From assembly GCF_000688255.1 (NCBI RefSeq), contig NZ_JHYS01000023.1, forward strand, positions 1-36,276: DNA of 36,276 nucleotides, read 5' to 3'. The notes under the pieces are model-generated. The model searched no databases, was not told the origin of the DNA, and saw only the letters and a list, made by a program, of their open reading frames with translations. Position numbers and translations under genes: made by a program. This DNA is from Simplicispira psychrophila DSM 11588. GTDB lineage: Bacteria; Pseudomonadota; Gammaproteobacteria; Burkholderiales; Burkholderiaceae_C. This document shows, one piece after another, positions 22,006 through 36,276 of the stretch (positions are counted from its first letter, which is position 1; every line of letters begins with the position of its first letter).

Positions 22006-22082
22006 CGGAGCGTAGCGCAGCCTGGTAGCGCATCTGCTTTGGGAGCAGAGGGTCGCGAGTTCGAATCCCGCCGCTCCGACCA
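22006..22082 (+). tRNA. tRNA-Pro (anticodon TGG)
   Basis: A complete 77-nt tRNA. CGGAGCG pairs with CGCTCCG, the anticodon stem is TCTGC/GCAGA with loop TTTGGGA (anticodon TGG), the T-loop is TTCGAAT and the CCA end is encoded. A strong intrinsic terminator follows ten bases later. Confidence 0.97.
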
Positions 22083-22864: not shown

Positions 22865-24205
22865 ATGGCCAAACAACCGAAACGTGTACGCCTGACCGCT
22901 GGCCGAGTGGAGTCCTTCACCTGCGCTGCCGGCAAGTCGCAAGATTTTCTGTGGGACACCGACACTCCGACGCTGGCGCTGCGCGTATCGCCCACAGGCC
23001 GAAAGACTTACGTGTTCGAGTCGCGTCTGAAGGGGGCCACCTTGCGCTTGACCATCGGCACCGCAGCAGACTGGCCGATTGGGCGGGCACGCAGCGAAGC
23101 ACAGCGCCTCAAGATGCTGGTGGACGACGGCAAAGACCCGCGCGAAATAGAAAGCCAGAAGCAGGCCGACAAAGCTGCCGCCCAAGTTGCCGCCGCCACT
23201 CAGGACGAAGCCGACAGACAAGCCGCCCTGACCGTGGGCGAAATCTGGCCTCTGTATTTGCAGACTGGCAAGCCCAAGCGCCGCGACGCATGGAAGCCGC
23301 GCTATGTGGCTGACCTCAAGAACATGAGCGCGCAAGGTGGCGTGCCCAAGCAAAGAGGGCAGGGGCTGACCCGACCGGGGCCGTTGTATCCACTGATGGC
23401 GCTGGCGCTGGCCAGCATCAACGAGGACGTGCTCCAAAGCTGGTTTGACCAAGAGGCTATGTCCGGCAAGCACCAAGCCGCCCGCGCCCTGATGATGTTC
23501 CGTGGTTTTTTGCGCTGGTGTACCGCCAAGCCCGCCTATCGCGCACTGGCTGACCGTGAGGCCGGCAAGTCCGCGCATATCCTTGACCAGCTACCCAGCA
23601 CAGCAGACAGCAAGCGCAAAGACGCGCTGCAAGCTGACCAAGTGCGCGGTTGGTGGGAGGGAGTGGAGCAATTGAGCAATCGCACCGCCAGCGTCTACCT
23701 TCGCGCCATGCTGCTGACCGGTGCACGCCGTGAAGAACTGGCGGCACTGACGTGGGCGCATGTGGATTTTCAGTGGCGCAAGCTGACCATTGCCGACAAG
23801 GTGGTCGCTACCCGCACCATCCCGCTGACACCGTACTTGGCGCACTTGCTGGCCAGCTTGCCCCGCGTGGGGCCATACGTGTTTGCCAGCACGAGTAAGA
23901 CCGGGCGCATCACCGACACCCGCAACAGTCACGCCAAAGTTTTGCAGGGCGCTGGGATTGAGAAGCTGACCATCCACGGCTTGCGCCGCACGTTCTCGCT
24001 GCTGGGTGAGGCTGCTGGCGCACCAGCCGGTGCAATTGCGCAAGTGATGGGACACCAGCCATCCGCAACTGCTGAGGGTTACAGGCCACGAAGTATTGAT
24101 GCGTTGCGCCCGTATACAGAAAAAATCGAGGCGCACATCCTGAGTGTGGCCAACGTGCAGTTCGACCGCGCTATCGAGCCGGGCAAGCTGCGCGCTGTGG
24201 GCTGA
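22865..24205 (+). CDS. tyrosine-type site-specific integrase
   Basis: A 446-residue integrase of the P4-like group, which use tRNA genes as targets. The N-terminal arm-binding domain (about 15-110) shows FLWDTDTPTLALRVSPTGRKTYVFESRL and TIGTAADWPIGRARSEAQRLKMLVDDGKDPR. The catalytic domain (about 250-430) has the first Arg in LLTGARREELAALTW, the H-x-x-R box in IHGLRRTFSLL, and the last His and nucleophile Tyr in VMGHQPSATAEGYRPRSID. AAGGA precedes the ATG. It lies 180 bases inside the tRNA-Thr fragment and reads into the island. All catalytic residues appear intact, so it may be active. Confidence 0.93.
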   Translation: MAKQPKRVRLTAGRVESFTCAAGKSQDFLWDTDTPTLALRVSPTGRKTYVFESRLKGATLRLTIGTAADWPIGRARSEAQRLKMLVDDGKDPREIESQKQADKAAAQVAAATQDEADRQAALTVGEIWPLYLQTGKPKRRDAWKPRYVADLKNMSAQGGVPKQRGQGLTRPGPLYPLMALALASINEDVLQSWFDQEAMSGKHQAARALMMFRGFLRWCTAKPAYRALADREAGKSAHILDQLPSTADSKRKDALQADQVRGWWEGVEQLSNRTASVYLRAMLLTGARREELAALTWAHVDFQWRKLTIADKVVATRTIPLTPYLAHLLASLPRVGPYVFASTSKTGRITDTRNSHAKVLQGAGIEKLTIHGLRRTFSLLGEAAGAPAGAIAQVMGHQPSATAEGYRPRSIDALRPYTEKIEAHILSVANVQFDRAIEPGKLRAVG

Positions 24206-26885: not shown

Positions 26886-27065
26886 ATGCATCAAATCTTG
26901 ATCATTCCCACCGCTGCATCCAGCCGCTACGCCGCGTCCACGGCGACCCTCTCTCCAGTTTATGGCCCAGAGGGTAAAGAGAGGACGGGGGTAGAGCAGC
27001 GCGAGGAAGCCGCCTTCGCTTGTGTCGCAAACTTTGGGCAAGTGCGCGAGGAAAACTCCCGAGTC

Positions 27066-27147
27066 CATGTCGTGAATGTCGTGCAAGTCGTGTTTCTGCT
27101 TAATTTTTCAGCAAAAACAGGGGTTTTGGGGCATTTAGCACGACATG
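27066..27147. repeat. tandem 9-bp repeats with an inverted copy
   Basis: CATGTCGTG, AATGTCGTG and CAAGTCGTG follow each other without gap (27066-27092). CACGACATG, the exact reverse complement of the first, is at 27139-27147. The space between is A+T-rich for this genome (TTAATTTTTCAGCAAAAACA). This is a candidate binding array for a regulator or replication protein. Confidence 0.5.
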
Positions 27148-27282
27148 GGAAATTGGGAGCCGGCGAACTTTTCCGCGTATCTGCTGGCACTGGACGGAAC
27201 GCACCACCAAACTTTGGTAGTGACCGCGCCGTCAGCCGCCGCCTGTACCGATATCCGAATTCCGACATCGACAACAGCGTGA
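27145..27282 (+). CDS. possible 45-residue protein
   Basis: An open frame MGNWEPANFSAYLLALDG to IRIPTSTTA. It has a protein-like first half but no ribosome-binding site, and its ATG lies in the inverted 9-bp repeat. It may be a fragment of a larger gene or chance. It is kept only as a weak candidate. Confidence 0.2.
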   Translation: MGNWEPANFSAYLLALDGTHHQTLVVTAPSAAACTDIRIPTSTTA

Positions 27283-27343
27283 CCAAAAGACACTCTGACC
27301 GCGCCCCCTCTTGCAACGCCGTGCGCCGCAAACTGGCTGCCTC

Positions 27344-27625
27344 CTACGCCGGTGAATGCGTTTTGAGCCAGTCTTTCAATGCGGCATCCATGCGTGTTTG
27401 CCATCCTGCACCCGTGGCCTTGAATGCAGCCAACACATCAGGGCTATACCGAACTGTCACGGCTATCTTGGTCGGCGCTTTCTGTGGCCCGCGTGGGCTG
27501 ATGCCCAGCGTCTTTTGCAATTCCAACGACAGCACTTCGGTGGCTGGTTTGAATGAGCGCATATCGGCGGCGCTCAGTTCTCGCACTTCGCCATCGGCGT
27601 CAATCAGTGGAGCGCGTGGATTCAT
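27344..27625 (-). CDS. BrnA-like antitoxin without a visible partner toxin
   Basis: A 93-residue protein with the C-terminal BrnA signature: KIAVTVRYSPDVLAAFKATGAGWQTRMDAALKDWLKTH (about residues 52-89), a ribbon-helix-helix that both neutralises BrnT and binds DNA. The N-terminal part (DGEVRELSAADMRSFKPATEVL) is also family-like. BrnA is normally encoded directly downstream of brnT, but upstream here there is no BrnT reading frame, only the control region for the divergent operon. It may act as a plain repressor of that region. The ATG at 27625 has AGGGC nearby; an earlier in-frame start at 27664 is less likely. Confidence 0.7.
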   Translation of the reverse strand: MNPRAPLIDADGEVRELSAADMRSFKPATEVLSLELQKTLGISPRGPQKAPTKIAVTVRYSPDVLAAFKATGAGWQTRMDAALKDWLKTHSPA

Positions 27626-27687
27626 AGCCCTAATTGTAGTAACAGGCCTACTGCCAGCCTTCACCGCTGGCGCTGGTTGCCGCCAAC

Positions 27688-27702
27688 TACGAAAGTTTCG
27701 TA
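27688..27702. promoter_or_regulatory. perfect 15-bp palindrome between brnA-like gene and leader
   Basis: TACGAAA-G-TTTCGTA lies 62 bases upstream of the brnA-like ATG and 17 bases before the candidate -35 box of the divergent leader promoter. The size suits a dimeric ribbon-helix-helix or helix-turn-helix repressor; the BrnA-like protein is the nearest candidate. Confidence 0.55.
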
Positions 27703-27718
27703 ATCGTCACACCACCCA

Positions 27719-27748
27719 TTGCAGCCCCATGCAACGTCGTGGCACAAT
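27719..27748 (+). promoter_or_regulatory. candidate promoter of the structured leader
   Basis: TTGCAG (27719-27724) and CACAAT (27743-27748) with an 18-base spacer. Transcription would begin near 27755, exactly where the first small hairpin of the leader (GGC-GAAA-GCC) starts. Confidence 0.45.
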
Positions 27749-27754
27749 CACGCC

Positions 27755-27824
27755 CAAGGCGAAAGCCCCGGTGCGTAGAAACACCATAGGTTCAGCGGTA
27801 GCAACCCCCACCGAAAGCGGGGTT
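27755..27824 (+). ncRNA. c4/CI-like antisense RNA candidate
   Basis: A compact structured RNA: hairpin GGC-GAAA-GCC (27758-27767), hairpin GGTG-CGTAGAAA-CACC (27770-27785), a single-stranded segment GGTTCAGCGGTAGCAA, then a terminator-like CCCC...GGGGTTTT (27806-27824). Segment GGTTCAGC (27789-27796) is complementary to GCTGAACC at 27914-27921, and CCCCCACC (27805-27812) to GGTGGGGG at 27884-27891, the latter extending with bulges to CGGT/ACCG. Two antisense segments that target a downstream stretch of the same transcript are the hallmark of phage P1 c4 and P4 CI RNAs. Function is inferred. Confidence 0.5.
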
Positions 27825-27876
27825 TTGTCACGTCTTGATTTTCGGGTGCATCCACGCTTGGATGTATCTCTGGTTT

Positions 27877-27972
27877 TGGACGTGGTGGGGGCTAACCGTA
27901 AGGCGCTCGCACGGCTGAACCCGTGTTCTAACCACCACGTCCATCCGCTGCACGTAGAAATGCAGCGGATGG
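27877..27972 (+). promoter_or_regulatory. leader hairpins of the replication operon (antisense target region)
   Basis: A perfect 12-bp stem TGGACGTGGTGG / CCACCACGTCCA (27877-27888 with 27932-27943) encloses both sequences complementary to the upstream RNA. A second perfect 12-bp stem CCATCCGCTGCA / TGCAGCGGATGG (27941-27952 with 27961-27972) overlaps its base by three nucleotides, so the two compete. The second has loop CGTAGAAA, identical to the loop of the upstream hairpin at 27774-27781. The Shine-Dalgarno sequence of the next gene (CAGGAG, 27988-27993) follows 15 bases later. Confidence 0.6.
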
Positions 27973-28001
27973 TCTTTGAATCTCGTTCAGGAGCCAAGAC
28001 C

Positions 28002-28223
28002 ATGACAGCCGTCACCACGGCCAGCCGCAGCGCTGCGCCCACTACCCCCCGCCTCGACCCTATCGCCTTGCACGGCGAAGCCATCAACGCCGCTGCTATG
28101 GCGCGTTGGTACACCGCCCGCCACGACTACGCCGCCGCCTTTCGCCGTTCTGCCCAAGCCACCGGTGCCCTACGCCGCCTGGCCGCTTTCGAGCGCATGG
28201 GCCCAGCAATGCAGGGGGCTTAA
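28002..28223 (+). CDS. small Ala/Arg-rich protein, first gene of the replication operon
   Basis: A 73-residue protein, MTAVTTASRSAAPTTPRLD to RLAAFERMGPAMQGA, with a predicted helical, basic second half (AMARWYTARHDYAAAFRRSAQATGALRRLAAFER). CAGGAG eight bases before the ATG supports the start. It lies immediately after the double-hairpin leader, so it would be the first product controlled by the RNA switch, as small cII-like or icd-like genes are in P1/P4. The family is not recognised. Confidence 0.65.
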   Translation: MTAVTTASRSAAPTTPRLDPIALHGEAINAAAMARWYTARHDYAAAFRRSAQATGALRRLAAFERMGPAMQGA

Positions 28224-28226
28224 CCC

Positions 28227-29234
28227 ATGAGCCACCTCAAAAACACCGCCCAACGTGCGGTTGCTGGCGTGCTGGCGCTGGGCACCACCATCGTGTGCGC
28301 TGGCATGGCGGCGCTGTCGGCGTCTGAGCGCGCGACCCAAACCACCGACAAGGCCATGCTGATCGGGCTGGCTGTCACGCTGGTGGCCGGTTCGCACTTG
28401 CTGCCCGCTTTGTCGCGCCGCAACTGGCCCGCCCGTGTCGTGTTCGCCGCTTGCGTGGTGGTCACGGTGTATGGGCACGCCAGCTTCTTTGCCGGCGTGA
28501 AGCAGCGCAGTGGTGAAGTGCGCGCCCAATCCGTTGTCTCCACCGGTCACGCGCTGGCGCTGCAAGGCGAACTGGCGGCCATCACCGCCCGCCCGGCGGC
28601 TGTGGTGGCGGCAGAACTGGCACAGGCCAGCGCCCGCAGCGCCCATGCCCAAGCGGCTTTGCTGCGGTGTGAGGCCAGCACGGCGCAGCGCTGCACCAGC
28701 GCGCAGGCCAGCACCACGGCCACGATGGCCAAGGTAGACGCCCTCAAAACGGAGGCCGTCGAATCTGCCCGCGCCGCCAACCTGCGCAGCCAACTGGCCA
28801 GCGCCGCCGGTGTCCTCGATGCAGCCCGCACCGGTGCCAGCGCCGACCCGGTGGACGCCCAAATTGCGGGCATTACCGGCCTGAGCGTGGGCGCCGTGGG
28901 CATGTTGTCGGCAGTGGCCCAAAGCCTTTTGCTGGAGCTGCTGGGCGCTTTGCTGTGGACGGTGGCTTTGCCTGGTGCAGTGGCTGCCACCAGCACCCAG
29001 CGGGCAACGGTCACCGCCCCGGCCCGAGTTGCCACGCCAGCAGCGCCAGCACCAGCAGCACCCAGCGCCGTGAGCGTGCCCCAAAAGGCAGGCCAGCAAC
29101 CCGACGCGGCAATGCGCTGGAGCGGTTCAATCCGCCGAATGATCGACGCAGCCCACCGCCTCAAGGCCAACGCGGCCCGCCACTTGACGGCACCCGCCAG
29201 CGCCAGCCCCACCACCGCCCTGCACTCCCACTAA
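28227..29234 (+). CDS. membrane protein with a central coiled coil, unknown function
   Basis: A 335-residue protein with three N-terminal membrane segments (about 11-30, 43-61 and 70-90), a long Ala-rich helical part with coiled-coil character (about 95-205, ALQGELAAITARPAAVVAAELAQASARSAHAQAALLRCE) and one longer hydrophobic stretch (about 217-252). The tail is Ala/Pro-rich and basic. Two Cys (CEASTAQRC) lie in the middle. Such proteins are common in plasmid- or phage-like operons of Burkholderiales and Xanthomonadales but have no known role. It starts three bases after the previous stop. Confidence 0.65.
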   Translation: MSHLKNTAQRAVAGVLALGTTIVCAGMAALSASERATQTTDKAMLIGLAVTLVAGSHLLPALSRRNWPARVVFAACVVVTVYGHASFFAGVKQRSGEVRAQSVVSTGHALALQGELAAITARPAAVVAAELAQASARSAHAQAALLRCEASTAQRCTSAQASTTATMAKVDALKTEAVESARAANLRSQLASAAGVLDAARTGASADPVDAQIAGITGLSVGAVGMLSAVAQSLLLELLGALLWTVALPGAVAATSTQRATVTAPARVATPAAPAPAAPSAVSVPQKAGQQPDAAMRWSGSIRRMIDAAHRLKANAARHLTAPASASPTTALHSH

Positions 29235-29244
29235 GGCCACCGCA

Positions 29245-29730
29245 ATGATCAAAAAACACACCGCCCCGCAAGGGGGTAAAGCCGCTGCATTGCCTGCCAA
29301 CTGCGCCAAGTGCCGCGACAACTTCCCGTTGCCTGTAGCAATGGACTACTTCGACCAGCGCGTCATAGCGGACTACACCCAGCGCCGCACCGCCTGCACT
29401 GCCGTGCCTGATGCCGAGAAGCCGTGCCTGTCAGCAGCGATTGACCGCGCTGTTGAACCGGCATTGAGCGGACGTTCGACGGACGCTCAGTTGCCAGCAC
29501 CAGCCGCCACCACCACCGCGCCTACGCTGGCCGACTTCGAGGCGTGGATGAAAGCAGAGGAGCAGCGCCTTCTAGACGCGATGGATGCAGCAGTCGCAGC
29601 GGATGACGCATCGACCTATGAGGCACTGCACGCGCAGTTCTTGGACTTGGGCAGCACGTTTGAAGTGTTGTGGAAATTCAAGACCACGATGCGCTACGCC
29701 AGCACCAGCACCCCAGAAAGCGCCGCATGA
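29245..29730 (+). CDS. protein of unknown function with a CxxC motif
   Basis: A 161-residue protein. It has CAKCRDNFPLP near residues 20-30 and further Cys at about 50 and 61, which might bind a metal. A Pro/Ala/Thr-rich linker (about 80-93) leads to an acidic helical C-terminus (LADFEAWMKAEEQRLLDAMDAAVAADDASTYEALHAQFLDL). No family is recognised. Its stop overlaps the start of the next gene (ATGA), so it is part of the coupled operon. Confidence 0.65.
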   Translation: MIKKHTAPQGGKAAALPANCAKCRDNFPLPVAMDYFDQRVIADYTQRRTACTAVPDAEKPCLSAAIDRAVEPALSGRSTDAQLPAPAATTTAPTLADFEAWMKAEEQRLLDAMDAAVAADDASTYEALHAQFLDLGSTFEVLWKFKTTMRYASTSTPESAA

Positions 29731-30494
29731 GCCAGAGCCAAACCACGATGCCATGCACCCCAGCGCAGCACGCCAACACCAGCAACACCAAGCCCGTGCG
29801 CCTGTTGGCGCTGGGTGACAGCCCCCACGGCAAAACCGTGCTGTGCGAGTTCCCCGAGGGCTGGCAGCGCTCCATTTGTCTGCCAACCCAAGCCGACGCT
29901 TGGCACCCACTGTTTAGCGCCCTGACGGCAAACGACCGAGGCGAGCTGCGCAAGCACACCGGCAACCCAATCATTCGCCACCCAGACGGCACCCGCACCC
30001 GCAAAGGCGCGCTGTCTTTCATCACCGAAGAAATTAGCCGCAACGGAGGCTTTGCAGGTGTGCGCAGCTTTGACGTTCCTGCTGAGGAGCACGGCGCAGG
30101 CTACATCACGGGATACCGCTGCGCGGCTGAACTGCTGCAAGCGCTGCAACGTGGCTACGGCCCCCATATTTCTGTGCGCGACATCACCGAAGCGGCAATG
30201 CAGGCCAGCAACGAGAAGTCAGGGACAGCCTCCCGGCGCAGTGCTGGCTACGGCTTTCTAGCGGTGCTTGAAGACGCACTGAGGTTTACGGCCCAGAACT
30301 CCAATCATGGGCTGCACATAGCCCAACAAATTGCAGAGGCAGAGCGCATGAACGCCCGCAATGCAGAGCAAGACGCACGCGAGAAAGCAGCATTTGTGCA
30401 GCGCATGAAGGCAGCGAAAGCCGAGAAACGCAGCACCAGCACCACCGCCCGCCACCGCCAACACCCGGCCACCAGCGCCACCCAACAAGGTTAA
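29727..30494 (+). CDS. protein of unknown function in the replication operon
   Basis: A 255-residue protein starting at the ATGA overlap (29727). An earlier in-frame ATG at 29670 lies inside the previous gene and is less likely. The middle part (RLLALGDSPHGKTVLCEFPEGWQRSICLPTQADAWHPLF, GAGYITGYRCAAELLQAL) looks like a folded alpha/beta domain. The C-terminal 60 residues are a charged helix (AEAERMNARNAEQDAREKAAFVQRMKAAKAEKR) and a Thr/Ser-rich tail. Not recognised. Confidence 0.65.
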   Translation: MSQSQTTMPCTPAQHANTSNTKPVRLLALGDSPHGKTVLCEFPEGWQRSICLPTQADAWHPLFSALTANDRGELRKHTGNPIIRHPDGTRTRKGALSFITEEISRNGGFAGVRSFDVPAEEHGAGYITGYRCAAELLQALQRGYGPHISVRDITEAAMQASNEKSGTASRRSAGYGFLAVLEDALRFTAQNSNHGLHIAQQIAEAERMNARNAEQDAREKAAFVQRMKAAKAEKRSTSTTARHRQHPATSATQQG

Positions 30495-30497
30495 AAA

Positions 30498-31919
30498 ATG
30501 ACCAACCAAAACACCCCGGCAGTGACCGGGCAAGCCGCTGCATTGCCTAAAACCTACGCGCAGCACCCTTTGAGCGCTGCATTGCCAGCTATGCCGCCCA
30601 AGCAATATCAGGCGCTGATGGACAGCATCGACAACATCGGAGTGGTGTCTCCCATTGCCATCTTTGACGGCCAGATTCTCGACGGATGGAACCGCTACAC
30701 CGCCGCCCGTGAGCTGGGGATGGCGTGCCCTGAGATTGTTTTGGATGCCAGCATCAGCCCGAGCGAATACCTCGACGCGCAGAACATGGGGCGCACCAAG
30801 GCCACCGCCCCAAGCAAGCACCAGTGCATCCCCCTGAAATTGCTGGAAGCGAGTCCGCAGCCCCGCCCGCTTGTCGCCGCAGACGTGGACAAGCTGGCCG
30901 CCAGCATCAAGCAGGTGGGTCTGATTCAGCCCATCACCGTTCGACCTTTGGTTGTCATGGACGGCATTGCCGTGCAAGGCTTTCAGACTGTGGCCGGCCA
31001 TCACCGTGTAGCCGCGTGCCGCTCGTTGGGCTGGACTGAAATCGACGCCATCGTCATCGAGGCACCTGACCACCTGAGCGCCGAGCTGATTGAAATTGAC
31101 GAAAACCTGTTCCGCTCTGAGTTGTCGCCCAGCCAGCGCAGCCACTACACCGCCCGCCGTAAGCAAATTTGGGGGGCGCTGCACCCGGTAGAAATTCAGG
31201 TGGCTCAACTTGCGCCACCTGAATTTTCCACAGGCCGCGAACAGGTGCGACAGCTTGTCGTACCTGTTGATGCTGTTGTGGGTGGAACAAGTGGTTCCAC
31301 CCAGAAAGCCACTGACCACAAAGACCGTCCGCAAAACCAACAACAGTTTGCAGCCGCCACTGCCGCGATAACCGGAGAGTCCAAGCAGTCCATCAATCGC
31401 CACCTTGCCCGCGCCGAAGCCATTGGTGATGGCCTGTTGCGCACCCACGGCACCAGCCTAGACAAAGGCGTGGAGCTGGACGCGCTGGCCAAGTTGCCCG
31501 AGCCGGAGCGCGCCGTGCTGATCGAACGCGCTGCTGCTGGCGAGAAGGTCACCGCCCGCAAGCCCACGGTAGTCGTGCCCCCGCCCAACAAAGCCCCGGC
31601 AGTGGCGCTGGCCACGCTGCCCGATGGCATGAACGAAGACGACTACGGCCCCAGCCCGGAAGAACTGGCCGCCGACCTTGCCGCCGAAGAAGATGACCGC
31701 AAGCTGATGCACAAGATGCTGGAATCAGACGATGTGGTTGCCACCTTGCACGCGCAGGTGAAGCAGCTACAGGCCGAGCTGCGCATCACCAACGAGCGCT
31801 TCAACGGCCTGATGAACAACAACGCCGCGCTGACCACCTTGCTAAAAAAACGCGACCGGCACATCAAAAAGCTGTACCAAGAGATTGACGAGCTGCGCAA
31901 GCAAGGCGGTGCAGCATGA
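30498..31919 (+). CDS. ParB-like protein with two ParB N-terminal domains in tandem
   Basis: A 473-residue protein. The first ParB/Srx-type domain spans about residues 22-90 (YQALMDSIDNIGVVSPIAIFDGQILDGWNRYTAARELG, with the GWNRYTAA box). A second, more complete one spans about 124-205 (VDKLAASIKQVGLIQPITVRP, QTVAGHHRVAACRSLGW, with the GHHR box), followed by LIEIDENLFRSELSPSQRS, which is typical of ParB clamps. A helix-turn-helix-like part (about 280-310) and a C-terminal coiled coil (about 410-470) complete it. Canonical ParB has one such domain. A ParA ATPase gene is not visible, so a role in replication or regulation, as with the related phage KorB/Noc-like proteins, is as likely as segregation. 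Confidence 0.8.
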   Translation: MTNQNTPAVTGQAAALPKTYAQHPLSAALPAMPPKQYQALMDSIDNIGVVSPIAIFDGQILDGWNRYTAARELGMACPEIVLDASISPSEYLDAQNMGRTKATAPSKHQCIPLKLLEASPQPRPLVAADVDKLAASIKQVGLIQPITVRPLVVMDGIAVQGFQTVAGHHRVAACRSLGWTEIDAIVIEAPDHLSAELIEIDENLFRSELSPSQRSHYTARRKQIWGALHPVEIQVAQLAPPEFSTGREQVRQLVVPVDAVVGGTSGSTQKATDHKDRPQNQQQFAAATAAITGESKQSINRHLARAEAIGDGLLRTHGTSLDKGVELDALAKLPEPERAVLIERAAAGEKVTARKPTVVVPPPNKAPAVALATLPDGMNEDDYGPSPEELAADLAAEEDDRKLMHKMLESDDVVATLHAQVKQLQAELRITNERFNGLMNNNAALTTLLKKRDRHIKKLYQEIDELRKQGGAA

Positions 31920-33469
31920 ACGCCCGCCTGTTTACCGACGCTGCGCCCGACTACACAGCGGCAACCTTTCCACCGCCCCGGCCCTTCCAGCAGTCGGCGC
32001 ATGAGGCGCTGCGCCAAGGCTTCAGGGAGGGGCATCGCTGCCAAGTCATTGCTTCGTCCACCGGATCGGGCAAAACCTATCTTGGTTTGCGCGTTGCCCA
32101 TGAGGCACTGCTCAAAGGCCGGCGTGTCACGTTTCTGTGTGACCGCACCACGCTGATCAACCAGACCAGTGCCGCCGCTAACGCATACGGCCTGAGCGCC
32201 CACGGCATCGTGCAGGCGAACCATCCCCAGCGCGATAGCAGTTTGCCGTTCCAAATCGCCAGCGTGCAGACCATCGACAAGCGCGAGTTCTGGCCGCAGA
32301 CCGATGTTCTCATCGTGGACGAGTGCCACACGCTGCATAAGGCGTGGGTGGAGTTCGCTGCCCAGACCAAGGCAGTCGTCATCGGCCTAACCGCTACGCC
32401 CTTCACAAAAGGCATGGGCCAGATATTCAGCCGCCTGATTAACGCCACCACCATGCACGACCTCACAGAGTCGGGGGTACTGGTGCCGCTGCGGGTATTG
32501 AGCTGCACCCGGCCCGATATGGCTGGCGCTGCTGTGACCAAGGGCGGCGAGTGGAGCGACAAGGCCGCCGAGGAGCGCGGCATGGGCATCGTGGGCGACG
32601 TGGTGAAGGAGTGGCAACTGCACGCCAGCGACCGCAAGACCATCGTCTTTGGGGCCAGTATTGCCCACAGCAAGGCACTGTGCGCGCAGTTCATCGAGGC
32701 CGGCATCTTGGCTAGAGTTTTCACCTCAGAGACACCGGCCCATGAGCGCGAGGAACTGGTTCGAGAGTTCGCCAAACCTGATGCAATGCTGCGCGTGCTG
32801 GTGTCGGTGGAGGCGCTGGCCAAGGGCTTCGACGTGCCGGACGTGGGTTGCGTGGTGGATGCGCGCCCGCTGCGCAAGAGCCTGAGCACCTTCATTCAAA
32901 TGATTGGCCGTGGCCTTCGGTGCAGCCCCGCCACCGGCAAAACCGACTGCCTGTTACTCGACCACAGCGGCAACATCGTGCGCTTCGCTGACGACTTCGA
33001 GCGCATCTATCACGACGGTGTGGAGTCGCTGGACGATGGCGCGAAGCTGGACAAGACGGTGCGCAAGGATGAGCCGGGCGAGTACGAATCCAAGGCGTGC
33101 CCGAGCTGCGGCCATGCGCCGTTCAGCAAGCGCTGCATGAGCTGCGGGTTTGAAAAGCCGGTGGTGGCAGTGGAGGTGTCCGCCGCTGGGGTGATGCGCG
33201 AAATCACCATAGGCAAGGGCAAGAGCCGCAAGGTGCTGGACAACGACCCGGCGCACCTGTGGGCGCAGTTGTGCGGCTATGCCAAGGCCAACAGCGCCCC
33301 AGACAAACAGCAATGGCGCGCGCGATTCCTGTTCAGGGACATTGCGGGCGACTGGCCGCCCGAGGCGTGGCATATCGCCACCACGCCCGATGTGCCGGTG
33401 TCCGCCGCGCTGAAGAGAAAAATCAGAAGCATGGTCATTGCACACGCCAGAGCAAAGGGGCGAGCATGA
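31916..33469 (+). CDS. superfamily-2 DEAD/DEAH-type helicase with C-terminal zinc motif
   Basis: A 517-residue SF2 helicase of the Ssl2/type III restriction-like group. Walker A is STGSGKT (48-54), Walker B DECH (135-138), motif III TATPF (159-163), and motif VI QMIGRGLR (328-335). The segment VSVEALAKGFDVPDVGCVVDARPLRKS before motif VI is typical of this group. A four-Cys zinc-ribbon-like motif, CPSCGH...CMSCGF (395-411), follows. It overlaps the ParB-like and primase genes by ATGA on both sides, which points to a replicative role on the element's DNA. Confidence 0.9.
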   Translation: MNARLFTDAAPDYTAATFPPPRPFQQSAHEALRQGFREGHRCQVIASSTGSGKTYLGLRVAHEALLKGRRVTFLCDRTTLINQTSAAANAYGLSAHGIVQANHPQRDSSLPFQIASVQTIDKREFWPQTDVLIVDECHTLHKAWVEFAAQTKAVVIGLTATPFTKGMGQIFSRLINATTMHDLTESGVLVPLRVLSCTRPDMAGAAVTKGGEWSDKAAEERGMGIVGDVVKEWQLHASDRKTIVFGASIAHSKALCAQFIEAGILARVFTSETPAHEREELVREFAKPDAMLRVLVSVEALAKGFDVPDVGCVVDARPLRKSLSTFIQMIGRGLRCSPATGKTDCLLLDHSGNIVRFADDFERIYHDGVESLDDGAKLDKTVRKDEPGEYESKACPSCGHAPFSKRCMSCGFEKPVVAVEVSAAGVMREITIGKGKSRKVLDNDPAHLWAQLCGYAKANSAPDKQQWRARFLFRDIAGDWPPEAWHIATTPDVPVSAALKRKIRSMVIAHARAKGRA

Positions 33470-34335
33470 GCTTCATTCAATTTGCCCGCGCTCACGGCAT
33501 CGACATTGACCCGGCCAAGCTGTACCCCGGCCAGAAGATTAAGCGCTGCGGCACCACCGAGAAACCCCGCTCAGGCGCTGGCGCGTACTTTTGGGACGGA
33601 GAACGCGGCTGGGTGTTTGATTGGTCAGGTGAAGCGCGCGTTCACTGGTTCAACGACCCGAGCGTCAACGCATGGACAGAAGCGGAGAAGGCCGCATGGC
33701 GTGCCAAGCGTCAGGCCGCCAGCTTCGACCAGGAGGAAAGCTACCGCCGCGCCGCCGTTCGCGCCCACGAGCTGCTGGCCAGCGCCAGCCCCGGTCAGCA
33801 CAGCTATCTGCACAGCAAAGGCTTCGCCGAGGCCGAGGGCTTCATTGCCGCCGATGGTGCGCTGCTGATACCGATGCGCGCCGCCCAAGGCAATGCGCTG
33901 CAAGGCGTGCAGGTCATCCGCTGGCTGGAGTACGAGCGCCGCCACGAAAAGAAGATGCAACCGGGCATGAAGGCCAAGGCCGCAGTGTTTCGCATGGGCG
34001 CACCGGCAGCGGCTGAAACCTGCCTGGTGGAGGGCTACGCCGACGGCCTCACGGTGCAGGCCGCGCTGCGCAGTATCGGCATCCATGCGGCTGTAGTCGT
34101 CTGCTTCAGCGCCCACAACATCGCCACCGTGGCCCCGCTGCTGACGGGCCGGCGCTGGGTGTTTGCCGACAACGACAAGTCGGGCACCGGCCAGCAAGTG
34201 GCCCAGCAGACCGGACTGCCGTGGTGCATGAGCGACACCGAAGGCGAAGACCCGAACGACCTGCACCAGCGTGCTGGCCTGCTGGCCGTGTGCCAAAAGA
34301 TTATGAATGTGCGCCGCGCTGGCGCTGGGAGCTGA
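33466..34335 (+). CDS. Toprim-domain DNA primase
   Basis: A 289-residue primase related to the plasmid/phage primases with a DUF7146-like front part. The front part (about 1-110) has YPGQKIKRCGTTEKPRSGAGAYFWDGERGWVFDWSG, without a CHC2-type zinc finger, and the Toprim core has TCLVEGYADGLTVQAAL (Glu 189) and WVFADNDKSGTGQQVA (D-x-D at 235-237). GEDPNDLH follows, as in other Toprim primases. It is shorter than P4 alpha and lacks a helicase domain; the helicase is the separate upstream gene. The ATGA start at 33466 is preferred over earlier starts inside the helicase gene. Confidence 0.88.
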   Translation: MSFIQFARAHGIDIDPAKLYPGQKIKRCGTTEKPRSGAGAYFWDGERGWVFDWSGEARVHWFNDPSVNAWTEAEKAAWRAKRQAASFDQEESYRRAAVRAHELLASASPGQHSYLHSKGFAEAEGFIAADGALLIPMRAAQGNALQGVQVIRWLEYERRHEKKMQPGMKAKAAVFRMGAPAAAETCLVEGYADGLTVQAALRSIGIHAAVVVCFSAHNIATVAPLLTGRRWVFADNDKSGTGQQVAQQTGLPWCMSDTEGEDPNDLHQRAGLLAVCQKIMNVRRAGAGS

Positions 34336-34337
34336 CC

Positions 34338-35246
34338 ATGGGCCGCAACAAGAAGTGGAAGAACGCCGGGGACAGCCGCGACGCTGGGGGATTCATTGCC
34401 CTACCGTGGGCGGTGCTGGATTCGGCAGCGTATCAAGCGCTTGGACACCCAGCCAAGGCGCTGCTGCTGGAGTTCGCCCGCCAGTACGTGCGCGACAACA
34501 ACGGGCGACTGCTGGCCTCTATGGCCTACCTCAAGGGCAGGGGATGGAGCAGCAACTCCCTGCTGACCCGGACAAAGAAGGAGCTGATTGATGCCGGCTT
34601 CATTCACGAAACCGCCAAGGGCCAGCGCCCCAGCAAGGCCAGTTGGTACGCCGTCACATGGGCAGCGCTAGACCGCATCCCCGGCTACGACACCGGAGCC
34701 GCCGAAACCTTCCAGCGTGGCGCATACCGAGCCAACGCACCTTTGACCATCACCTCCCGCCCAACCAACAAGGCCAAGACCATGACAAAAACACCCTCAA
34801 ATCATGATACGAATGGTTACGGGCTTACACCTCCTCAAGGTGCGCTAAGTGCCCCTACAGCACCTCCTCAAGGTGTAGAGAGTATGCCCACTGCACCTCC
34901 TCAAGGTGCTGTAAAGGGGGTTTTTGACCATTCCTCTACACCTCCTCACGGTGACCATCTAGAGAACCATCTCTACTGCACCGGACTGGCCTCTTCTTTG
35001 GAAGTTTTTGAAAACGAAAAAATGCCAAAAATTGCCGAAGCGTTTTGCGCTGAACCTGCTGACGAGCAAGGCCGCTATCTGCGCTTGCGCCCAAACCCCA
35101 AGGGCTTGTTCACCGGACTTGGCCTTGTTGGCTTGGGTGCTGTTGGGGTGATGGCTGCACTGCCGGCCCGCCGACTGCCGCCGCCGACTGCCATCCAGCG
35201 CCAGCCCAAAGCCGCGCCGTGGCACCAACCCAAAGGTGCGCAATGA
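34338..35246 (+). CDS. winged-helix replication-initiator-like protein with internal iterons
   Basis: A 302-residue protein. The N-terminal part (about 15-115) reads like the winged-helix domain of phage replication proteins: GGFIALPWAVLDSAAYQALGHPAKALLLEF, LKGRGWSSNSLLTRTKKELIDAGFIHETAKGQRPSKASWYAVTWAALD. The middle (about 164-206) has four repeats TPPQGA, APPQGV, APPQGA, TPPHGD, encoded by four 15-bp palindromic iterons. A hydrophobic stretch LFTGLGLVGLGAVGVMAAL (about 257-275) may contact the membrane. It follows the primase gene by two bases. Lambda O is the functional analogy (winged helix, origin inside the gene); I see no clear sequence homology to O. Confidence 0.7.
   Translation: MGRNKKWKNAGDSRDAGGFIALPWAVLDSAAYQALGHPAKALLLEFARQYVRDNNGRLLASMAYLKGRGWSSNSLLTRTKKELIDAGFIHETAKGQRPSKASWYAVTWAALDRIPGYDTGAAETFQRGAYRANAPLTITSRPTNKAKTMTKTPSNHDTNGYGLTPPQGALSAPTAPPQGVESMPTAPPQGAVKGVFDHSSTPPHGDHLENHLYCTGLASSLEVFENEKMPKIAEAFCAEPADEQGRYLRLRPNPKGLFTGLGLVGLGAVGVMAALPARRLPPPTAIQRQPKAAPWHQPKGAQ
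34828..34953. repeat. four 15-bp palindromic iterons inside the initiator gene
   Basis: CACCTCCTCAAGGTG at 34828-34842, 34861-34875 and 34894-34908, and CACCTCCTCACGGTG at 34939-34953. Spacing is 33, 33 and 45 bases, all multiples of three. The arms CACCT and AGGTG pair in each copy (the last has one change). Being near three helical turns apart, bound proteins would face the same side of the DNA. Confidence 0.9.
34828..35036. other. candidate replication origin (iterons plus A+T-rich segment)
   Basis: After the four iterons, the bases 34991-35036 (CTTCTTTGGAAGTTTTTG, AAAACGAAAAAATGCCAAAA and so on) are about two-thirds A+T in a G+C-rich region. Iterons followed by an A+T-rich unwinding element, both within an initiator gene, is the layout of the lambda and lambdoid origins. 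The call is by analogy. Confidence 0.5.
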
Positions 35247-35573
35247 CCAAACCACCCATGTTCAAGCAAGACCCCAACGACCGCGAAGGCGGCTACCTGT
35301 TGTCCATGGCTGGCGTGCTGGCGCTGATGGGAGCCACCGCCTACGAGGCTGACGATGCCGTCACGCCCCAAGGCCGCGCCAATGCCAAGTACGGACTGGC
35401 CCGCATCCTGAGCGCCGCACGCGCCGGGGGCTTCACGCAGGGCGACTTGCTGGACACCTTGTTTTTCAATGGCGAAGTCTCGGAGCGCCTACGCGACATG
35501 GTGCACGCCGCAGTGGACGCAGCCGGCAACAAGGCCATGCTGGAAGTTGTGGCCAGCTTGCAGGAGCGTTGTG

Positions 35574-35581
<8 letters not shown>
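35243..35581 (+). CDS. small protein of unknown function, late in the replication operon
   Basis: A 112-residue protein, MTKPPMFKQDPNDREGGYL to VASLQERCDD. It has a hydrophobic stretch LLSMAGVLALMGATA near residues 19-33 and then a helical domain (ANAKYGLARILSAARAGGFTQGDLLDTLFFNGEVSERLRDMVHAAVDAAGNKAMLEVVASLQ). It starts in the stop codon of the initiator gene (ATGA) and overlaps the next gene by eight bases. The family is not recognised. Confidence 0.65.

Positions 35582-36276
<695 letters not shown>

What the first reader, a model, noticed from the sequence alone, without database searches (positions are those of the whole stretch)
27719..28002. A c4/P4-CI-like antisense RNA switch in front of the island's replication operon
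Seen in sequence: a short structured RNA (about 27755-27824, ending in GGGGTTTT) holds two segments complementary to a downstream target in the same transcript: GGTTCAGC to GCTGAACC (27914-27921) and CCCCCACC to GGTGGGGG (27884-27891, extendable with bulges). The target is enclosed by a perfect 12-bp hairpin. Known: phage P1 c4 and satellite P4 CI RNAs work this way, and in P4 the RNA controls entry into the replication operon. Inferred: the same logic controls this 8-kb operon in a betaproteobacterial element. I know of no description for this family.
Basis: partly seen in the sequence, partly recalled or inferred. Interest (0 to 1): 0.85.

Follow-up and report, generated by a model that had tools for sequence, protein, structure and literature searches.

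The report
Three-part antisense RNA switch before replication operon
Upstream of a mobile island's replication genes lies a leader RNA whose middle part can base-pair with two look-alike sites, one at the start of the leader and one at the ribosome-binding site, much as in phage satellite P4, and the same design offers a function for an orphan small RNA (sRNA-Xcc1) known from integrons and phages.

Summary
The leader has three parts: (1) a 5' RNA with two hairpins and a pseudoknot/terminator (27756-27826); (2) a three-way-junction domain (27877-27943) whose loop is antisense to the Shine-Dalgarno region; (3) a hairpin plus the Shine-Dalgarno site (27941-27993). Two short keys, X and Y, occur identically in parts 1 and 3 and as complements in part 2. 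Across 28 homologues each key helix is 97.6-100% paired with many two-sided changes; 60 further loci repeat the result. GGTTCAGC/GCTGAACC is key Y; CCCCCACC/GGTGGGGG is not supported. Phage P4 has the same layout: isrK/seqA, CI (C4), seqC at the Shine-Dalgarno. Rfam's C4 model does not match. Part 2 is a divergent relative of sRNA-Xcc1 (RF02221). RF02221 loci as a set carry matching keys upstream and downstream (18 of 29 loci clear in at least two of four arms, 6 in none), before KilA-N genes in two phages and SymE-like genes in likely integron cassettes. sRNA-Xcc1 thus looks like the antisense RNA of a widespread C4/CI-type switch. Function is inferred, not measured.

The parts
27740..27748 (+). 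extended -10-like promoter element TGG-CACAAT; start of transcription expected near 27755
   Evidence: An extended -10-like motif was found at this place in 24 of 28 homologues; 3.6% of shuffled upstream pieces match (the shuffles were tested with a narrower pattern). No full sigma-70 consensus promoter was found in window 27600-28030.
27756..27826 (+). part 1, 5' RNA of isrK/seqA layout: hairpin 27758-27767, key-X hairpin 27770-27785, key Y1, pseudoknot/terminator
   Evidence: Covariance model R1: window 27756-27830 at 90.3 bits (the model was built from 28 loci that include this one); helices 1, 2, 5, 6.
27770..27785 (+). X1 hairpin GGTG-CGTAGAAA-CACC; key X1 = TAGAA 27776-27780
   Evidence: X1-X2' helix 98.8% paired, 5 of 6 pairs with two-sided changes.
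27789..27796 (+). key Y1 = GGTTCAGC
   Evidence: Y1-Y2' helix 97.6% paired, 5 of 6 pairs with two-sided changes.
27796..27826 (+). H-type pseudoknot ending in T4: CGGT 27796-27799 with ACCG 27810-27813; CCCC 27805-27808 with GGGG 27819-27822; T-run 27823-27826; possible weak terminator
   Evidence: Stem 2 99.1% paired with two-sided changes in 2 of 4 pairs; stem 1 weaker, 78.8%. The terminator scan did not report this site.
27844..27869 (+). variable spacer hairpin (absent or very short in L010, L023, L025, L027, L029), terminator-like
27877..27943 (+). part 2, C4/sRNA-Xcc1-like antisense domain: closing stem 27877-27888/27932-27943, hairpin A 27889-27908 (GTAA tetraloop), hairpin B 27910-27925
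   Evidence: Fold; covariation helices 7-10; RF02221 sub-threshold hits at this place in 8 of 26 homologous loci; none for the window itself at E<=10.
27914..27921 (+). key Y2' = GCTGAACC, loop of hairpin B; complementary to Y1 and Y3 (anti-Shine-Dalgarno)
27926..27931 (+). key X2' = TTCTAA; complementary to X1 and X3 (only 5 bp in the window copy)
27941..27972 (+). part 3, 12-bp hairpin with the same loop CGTAGAAA (27953-27960) as X1; key X3 = TAGAA 27955-27959
   Evidence: X2'-X3 98.2% paired, 5 of 6 pairs with two-sided changes.
27985..27993 (+). key Y3 (GTTCAG 27985-27990) merging into the Shine-Dalgarno AGGAG 27989-27993
   Evidence: Y2'-Y3 100% paired, 5 of 6 pairs with two-sided changes.
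28002..28223 (+). first gene of the operon, 73 aa, no family
   Evidence: No hit in Pfam, PHROGs or NCBIfam.
28227..36014 (+). rest of the presumed operon: 335-aa unknown (28227), 29245, 29670, ParB-like (30498-31919), RadD/ResIII-type helicase (31916-33469), weak Toprim (33259-34335, below Pfam's cut-off), 34221, 35469

Best explanation
A three-part antisense RNA switch of the P4 seqA-CI-seqC type controls entry into the island's replication operon. A promoter just before 27755 makes one leader. Its middle domain (27877-27943) folds into a three-way junction that presents two keys: Y2' in a hairpin loop and X2' beside it. The keys can pair with identical copies in the 5' RNA (X1, Y1, next to a pseudoknot/terminator) and at the ribosome-binding site (X3 hairpin, Y3 = Shine-Dalgarno). 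Shown by sequence covariation: the fold and all four key pairings. Inferred: the middle domain accumulates as a small RNA and silences the operon in cis and in trans, by blocking translation at Y3/X3 and favouring early termination at the 5' RNA; the terminated 5' RNA, whose Y arm pairs more strongly than the Shine-Dalgarno does, can soak up the antisense RNA and release the operon, as isrK does. sRNA-Xcc1 (RF02221) is the middle element of the same kind of module.
For: 28-locus alignment: 92.8% of cells paired, 38 of 54 pairs with two-sided changes, against 39-44% paired when slid. X2'-X3 98.2% and Y2'-Y3 100%. The mean cognate match exceeds 10000 of 10000 permutations for all four pairings in the 28 loci, in 60 loci not used to find the pattern, and in 29 RF02221 loci. 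In the 60 loci, 56 have at least two of four comparisons above the 95th percentile of non-cognate pairs. P4 holds C4 (74.9 bits) with isrK (60.8 bits) and c4-a1b1 (44.1 bits, just under its cut-off of 46.7) upstream, and its sequence shows X and Y keys in the same three places. RF02221 finds the middle domain sub-threshold in 8 of 26 loci, in L055 at 35.8 bits, and above cut-off in L167 and L168, whose 5' RNAs match model R1 at 32.7 and 32.9 bits. sRNA-Xcc1 was mapped by RACE as an 88-nt RNA in Xanthomonas (PMC2996969, passages). In two phages the module precedes KilA-N genes, in one with an annotated anti-repressor next. Y1-Y2' is stronger than Y3-Y2' in 26 of 28 loci. The experimental logic of P4 CI and isrK is described in PMC4825925 (abstract and sections 12, 13, 21).
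Against: No RNA data for this genome: neither a discrete middle RNA nor termination is shown. Rfam C4 does not match, and the window copy gives no RF02221 hit at E<=10. The window's X arm is only 5 bp (duplex -3.2 kcal/mol; mean of the 28 is -8.4), apparently because X2' lacks one base. The T-run is T4 followed by G, the terminator scan did not report it, and no full sigma-70 promoter was found. The 5' RNA folds no better than shuffles (z -0.19). Single loci are often not decisive: X1-X2' exceeds the non-cognate 95th percentile in only 17 of 60 loci (X sequences are few and T/A-rich), and 6 of 29 RF02221 loci exceed it in no arm. A test for avoidance of equal keys within one genome was uninformative.
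Confidence: 0.76

Rival explanations
1. One reading: the 5' RNA (27755-27824) is the C4-like repressor and the middle hairpin is only its target.
For: The 5' RNA is short, ends terminator-like and pairs strongly with the middle.
Against: In both keys the 5' RNA is identical, not complementary, to the Shine-Dalgarno part, so it cannot mask it through the keys; the middle can. C4 and sRNA-Xcc1 folds correspond to the middle. In P4 the upstream RNA is the target.
Confidence: 0.08
2. IsrK-type activator as the main mode: readthrough mRNA is silent by default because the middle masks the Shine-Dalgarno; the short 5' RNA in trans pairs with the middle and turns translation on.
For: Same layout as isrK, for which activation in trans was shown (PMC4825925). 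Y1-Y2' is stronger than Y3-Y2' in 26 of 28 loci.
Against: In the wild-type isrK mRNA the cis copy already pairs and the message is silent, so the outcome depends on kinetics not tested here. It is a part of the best explanation rather than excluded by it.
Confidence: 0.3
3. Purely cis-acting switch: the two pairing states of one leader respond to a protein, ribosome or temperature, with no trans-acting RNA.
For: All partners lie in one transcript; nothing here shows a separate RNA in this genome.
Against: Relatives or look-alikes make discrete middle RNAs: sRNA-Xcc1 88 nt by RACE, CI RNA in P4 and STnc1160 in Salmonella as told. The keys are diverse between copies, as expected for recognition of self.
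Confidence: 0.2
4. Chance repeats or a DNA-level element (recombination site, origin hairpins).
For: Hairpins next to a replication operon; the window alone is only moderately unusual (14 of 2000 shuffles).
Against: Two-sided changes in all four helices, replication in 60 further loci, a fixed place before a Shine-Dalgarno and ATG.
Confidence: 0.02

Closest known systems
Phage P4 immunity region (seqA/isrK - CI RNA (C4, RF01695) - seqC)
   Same: Order of parts, key X in two hairpin loops, key Y in the 5' RNA and at the Shine-Dalgarno, antisense middle with closing stem and two hairpins, before replication genes.
   Different: No Rfam C4, isrK or c4-a1b1 match at E<=10 in window 27600-28100; hairpin A has a GNRA-like tetraloop; the 5' RNA ends in a pseudoknot with only T4; model R1 does not find P4; host is a Comamonadaceae island, not a P4 element.
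sRNA-Xcc1 (Rfam RF02221)
   Same: Same three-way-junction fold; RF02221 hits 8 of 26 homologous loci sub-threshold at the exact place; hybrids L167/L168 have a 5' RNA matching model R1 and an Xcc1 core above cut-off.
   Different: The Comamonadaceae domain is about 16 nt shorter (71 nt against 87 model positions; part of the AAUACAA...GGAAUA strands is missing) and stays below the gathering score; the window copy is not detected.
isrK / STnc1160 / orf45 of Salmonella prophage Gifsy-1
   Same: Terminated 5' RNA plus readthrough leader with an internal complementary RNA before a small ORF; an RNA that acts on its own mRNA (PMC4825925, sections 12, 13, 21).
   Different: Different sequence family; the operon there leads to anrP rather than replication genes.
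P1/P7 c4-icd-ant
   Same: Two short separate antisense arms against a leader with the ribosome-binding site (recalled; only the title of the c4 paper and the Rfam names were seen).
   Different: P1 sequence was not examined here; the target genes differ.

Membership tests
C4 antisense RNA (RF01695) | Covariance model score at or above 45 bits | tested here: not met
   No RF01695 match in window 27600-28100 at E<=10 nor in 26 homologous loci at E<=1 (20 loci) or E<=3 (12 loci, 6 of them again).
C4 antisense RNA (RF01695) | Closing stem enclosing two hairpins, the second with a loop complementary to the ribosome-binding region, then a second antisense strand | tested here: met
   compared by eye with the P4 C4 alignment.
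C4 antisense RNA (RF01695) | Acts in trans as an antisense repressor | not testable with these tools
   Needs RNA and reporter experiments.
P4-type immunity module | Order target - antisense RNA - target, the last at the start of the first gene | tested here: met
P4-type immunity module | Stands before a replication operon | tested here: met
   ParB-like, RadD/ResIII helicase, weak Toprim downstream in the window; in relatives the downstream genes vary and few resemble the window's.
P4-type immunity module | Premature termination and immunity to a second copy | not testable with these tools
   Within-genome key comparison was uninformative.
sRNA-Xcc1 (RF02221) | Score at or above the gathering score of 53 bits | tested here: not met
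   Window none; 8 of 26 loci 30-37 bits. L167 and L168, found with the 5' RNA model, score 68.2 and 66.5; of two further family loci L093 scores 27.9 and L104 nothing.
sRNA-Xcc1 (RF02221) | Members lie between an X/Y-bearing 5' RNA and an X/Y-bearing Shine-Dalgarno (feature proposed here) | tested here: met
   As a set: 29 of 30 loci tested, 0 of 10000 permutations reach the observed mean for any of four arms. Per locus: 18 of 29 clear in at least two of four arms, 5 in one, 6 in none (L038, L042, L047, L051, L052, L060).
isrK (RF01394) | Covariance model score at or above 50 bits | tested here: not met
   None in the window; L167 22.8 bits at the 5' RNA.

The most novel reading that the evidence does not exclude
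sRNA-Xcc1 and the Comamonadaceae leaders are one Proteobacteria-wide family of two-key antisense modules, parallel to or derived from C4/isrK, that mobile elements use to silence a costly first gene until they sense that no kin is present. In integron cassettes the module is the RNA antitoxin of a SymE-type toxin, so sRNA-Xcc1 is a self-limiting antitoxin and not mainly a virulence regulator. X and Y reassort (26 combinations of the compared stretches in 28 loci), giving a large code of compatibility groups.
Probability: 0.5. Interest if true: 0.8.

Novelty: new variant of a known kind. Interest (0 to 1): 0.68.

Why it matters
It corrects the roles in the reported switch and describes a family in the host's own taxonomic family (84 matches of the 5' RNA model in 50 of 399 genomes, own genome included) whose copy in this window matches no Rfam family above its cut-off. 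It also gives a concrete mechanism for sRNA-Xcc1, an RNA discussed as a trans-acting, virulence-linked sRNA with many predicted targets (passages), and for the symE + sRNA-Xcc1 integron cassette, the most widespread one in Xanthomonas, whose regulation was called divergent without a mechanism (PMC12444791, passages). If right, sRNA-Xcc1's first target is the gene right next to it, which is easy to test.

Tried and rejected
Rejected: the CCCCCACC/GGTGGGGG pair. Rejected: direct membership in Rfam C4; the Flavi_ISFV_CRE and leuA-Halobacteria hits (21.1 and 11.5 bits, gathering 41 and 47.9) are taken as chance. Led nowhere: similarity of the leader DNA to phages or plasmids (no match); the second operon protein in phages (no match); avoidance of identical keys within a genome (16 pairs, 0 equal; 65 pairs, 1 equal, 0.24 expected; key X was cut at two different offsets and some Shine-Dalgarno sites were mispicked, so its key counts are not used). 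A first permutation test on the RF02221 loci used badly cut arms and printed wrong flank letters; it was replaced. A covariance model of the middle domain was not built, because MAFFT put the closing stem out of register in alignment A2. The Xanthomonas plasmid hit is a fragment between two transposases and says nothing.

Dropped rows: L014 was left out of the 28-locus alignment (no 5' domain; 28 of 29 loci used). L020 and L024 were not given to the Rfam scans (26 of the 28 loci L002-L029 scanned, plus the window). L036 was left out (contig start; 29 of 30). Of 84 matches, 80 were taken (the window's own and 3 already held were not refetched), 60 of these 80 were used: 9 already used, 1 duplicate (L169), 4 without a hairpin my finder accepted, 6 without a Shine-Dalgarno/ATG in range. 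The printout was cut, so I saw only part of the 80 sequences by eye.

The structure was first seen by eye in the same loci on which searches count it; one search is the separate check, on loci found through the 5' RNA and related to the first set.

Full report
What is there. The window is a whole contig, G000:C23 of a 3.6-Mb genome. Related genomes with the same leader are, where named, Burkholderiales of the Comamonadaceae (family recalled): 28 stretches in genome contigs match a leader pattern, among them Acidovorax, Comamonas, Giesbergeria, Simplicispira, Malikia, Hydrogenophaga. An integrase (22865-24205) lies beside a tRNA-Pro gene (22006-22082). An antitoxin-like HTH protein (24656), a Rha-like regulator (25860) and a BrnA-type antitoxin (27344-27664, minus strand) follow. 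Then come the leader and an operon with ParB-like, RadD/ResIII-helicase and weak Toprim genes.

Homologues. The leader has a second copy in the same genome (79%), and 17 of 199 genomes, the own genome included, have a match. Aligning 28 of the 29 loci shows the threefold pattern of two keys. Key X: loop of the 5' hairpin, complement beside hairpin B, the same loop again in the downstream hairpin. Key Y: single strand before the pseudoknot, complement in the loop of hairpin B, the same letters again at the Shine-Dalgarno.

Covariation. For the structure with X1-X2' and Y1-Y2', 92.8% of 1448 cells pair (shuffles 76.4%), 38 of 54 pairs have a two-sided change (shuffles 23.4), and slid versions pair in only 39-44%. 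X2'-X3 pairs in 98.2% and Y2'-Y3 in 100% of cells (slid 41-49%). The mean cognate match exceeds all 10000 permutations for all four pairings. The compared stretches take 13 X and 17 Y forms in 26 combinations in the 28 loci, so the two keys reassort. These loci also suggested the structure, so I repeated the test on loci found with a covariance model of the 5' RNA only (R1): 50 of 399 genomes of the host's family, 84 matches, up to 8 in one genome. In 60 of the 80 fetched loci all four comparisons again exceed all 10000 permutations; the cognate partner is the best of its row in 14 (X1-X2'), 19 (X3), 47 (Y1-Y2') and 46 (Y3) of 60. Per locus, 56 of 60 have at least two comparisons above the non-cognate 95th percentile and 3 have none (L139, L147, L166); X1-X2' alone passes in 17, X3 in 34, Y1-Y2' in 52 and Y3 in 49. 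So key Y carries most of the per-locus evidence; X sequences are fewer and T/A-rich. Some copies lack the middle domain or the downstream part (L147, L166, L153 by eye).

The fold. The middle domain alone folds as drawn: a 12-bp closing stem, hairpin A with a GTAA tetraloop and hairpin B with the Y2' loop (-36.3 kcal/mol, z -4.24). The 5' RNA alone is not unusually stable (z -0.19). Its pseudoknot second stem is well supported (99.1% paired), the first less so (78.8%).

What it works like. In phage P4, Rfam finds isrK and c4-a1b1 (the latter just under its cut-off) upstream and C4 (the CI RNA) downstream on the same strand. Reading the P4 sequence, I find key X (CGTGAGAA loop; TTCTCAC; GAGCGTGAGAACTC hairpin) and key Y (TTCACAGG; CCTGTGAA in the C4 loop; TTCACAGGAGG before ATG) in the same three places. 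PMC4825925 (abstract and sections 12, 13, 21) states that CI RNA causes termination by pairing with seqA and seqC, upstream and downstream of CI; that P4 SeqA RNA is a structural homologue of isrK; and that short isrK in trans makes its own readthrough message translatable.

Membership. The Rfam C4 model does not match. The nearest Rfam family is sRNA-Xcc1: RF02221 scores 30-37 bits at the middle domain in 8 of 26 loci (gathering score 53), 35.8 bits in L055 and 27.9 in L093 but nothing in L104 or the window copy. L167 and L168, found with the 5' RNA model at 32.7 and 32.9 bits, have RF02221 cores of 68.2 and 66.5 bits, and L167 also a weak isrK match at its 5' RNA. So the two kinds grade into each other.

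sRNA-Xcc1 itself. RF02221 was found in 25 of 369 genomes of the host's class (GTDB Gammaproteobacteria, recalled) at E<=0.001, 11 over the cut-off. I read the flanks of 30 loci. In clear cases there is an X hairpin, a Y strand and a GCGG...TTTT terminator upstream, and an X copy and Y plus Shine-Dalgarno and ATG downstream. In 29 loci together the mean cognate match exceeds all 10000 permutations for all four arms, with the cognate best of its row in 10 to 12 of 29. Per locus, 18 of 29 pass the non-cognate 95th percentile in at least two arms, 5 in one, 6 in none. R1 finds the upstream RNA at the expected place and strand in 15 of the 31 loci given, but only 5 of these at E<=0.01 (one of them L055, which is of the Comamonadaceae kind); 2 of its 17 hits at E<=1 were elsewhere, and P4 was not found. 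Four loci lie beside what look like attC sites (by eye, motif recalled) and drive small proteins; the three scanned are Pfam SymE_toxin. In Acinetobacter phage 4316 and Vibrio phage VaK, RF02221 scores 79.7 and 65.9 bits and is followed directly by a KilA-N gene and by a KilA-N gene plus an annotated anti-repressor, with the keys readable. This resembles the c4-antirepressor arrangement of P1 (recalled). sRNA-Xcc1 was mapped by RACE as an 88-nt RNA (PMC2996969, passages), which fits a discrete middle RNA.

Direction of control. The Y1 arm pairs more strongly with the middle than Y3 does in 26 of 28 loci (mean -12.1 against -8.0 kcal/mol); the X arms are equal on average (-8.4 and -8.3). This suits a 5' RNA that can titrate the antisense RNA, but kinetics decide and were not tested. 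The window's X arm is weak (5 bp, -3.2).

What is in print. PMC12444791 (passages) calls symE + sRNA-Xcc1 the most widespread Xanthomonas cassette, with a 'divergent regulatory mechanism' not explained in the passages seen. PMC12189769 (passages) lists C4, isrK and sRNA-Xcc1 within about 400 bp of each other in a Xylella genome but treats sRNA-Xcc1 homologues as trans-acting regulators. I found no paper linking sRNA-Xcc1 to the C4/CI mechanism in searches, which cover open-licence PMC papers only and which I saw as listings. Of the 18 papers naming sRNA-Xcc1 I looked at passages of three. The RNA Biology 2011 paper on sRNA-Xcc1 is not held.

Verdict. The unexpected gain is a testable function for sRNA-Xcc1.

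Noticed in passing
G000:C10:115467-115764 (L002, L170): Second copy of the leader in the same genome, 79% identical, with different keys X and Y, at a contig end; another integrase (41% identical to the window's) lies within the 16 kb before it.
   Followed up: partly
window 27344-27664 (-): BrnA-type antitoxin next to the leader; no Pfam match (so no BrnT) in three neighbouring minus-strand ORFs.
   Followed up: partly
L147, L166, L153, L148: Copies that keep the 5' RNA but seem to have lost the middle antisense domain or the downstream part (by eye); in L147 and L166 a ribosome-binding-like site and ATG follow soon after: decay, or escape from control.
   Followed up: no
G047 and G687: Eight R1 matches in one genome each.
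   Followed up: partly
L031, L033, L056, L057: sRNA-Xcc1 modules in likely integron cassettes directly before SymE-like genes (three of the four scanned).
   Followed up: partly
L168, L169: Two copies of the hybrid module in one genome (G825), identical over the stretch printed.
   Followed up: no
L013 2971-3048 (-): int-alpA RNA (RF02996, 53.1 bits) about 1.2 kb from a leader copy.
   Followed up: no
Xylella fastidiosa subsp. pauca De Donno 1,323,982-1,324,381 (table in PMC12189769): C4, isrK and an sRNA-Xcc1 homologue annotated side by side on one strand: two kinds of module next to each other, or a composite one.
   Followed up: no
window 26886-28223 (+): A 445-aa open frame runs through the leader into the first gene; no Pfam match, probably spurious before 28002.
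   Followed up: partly
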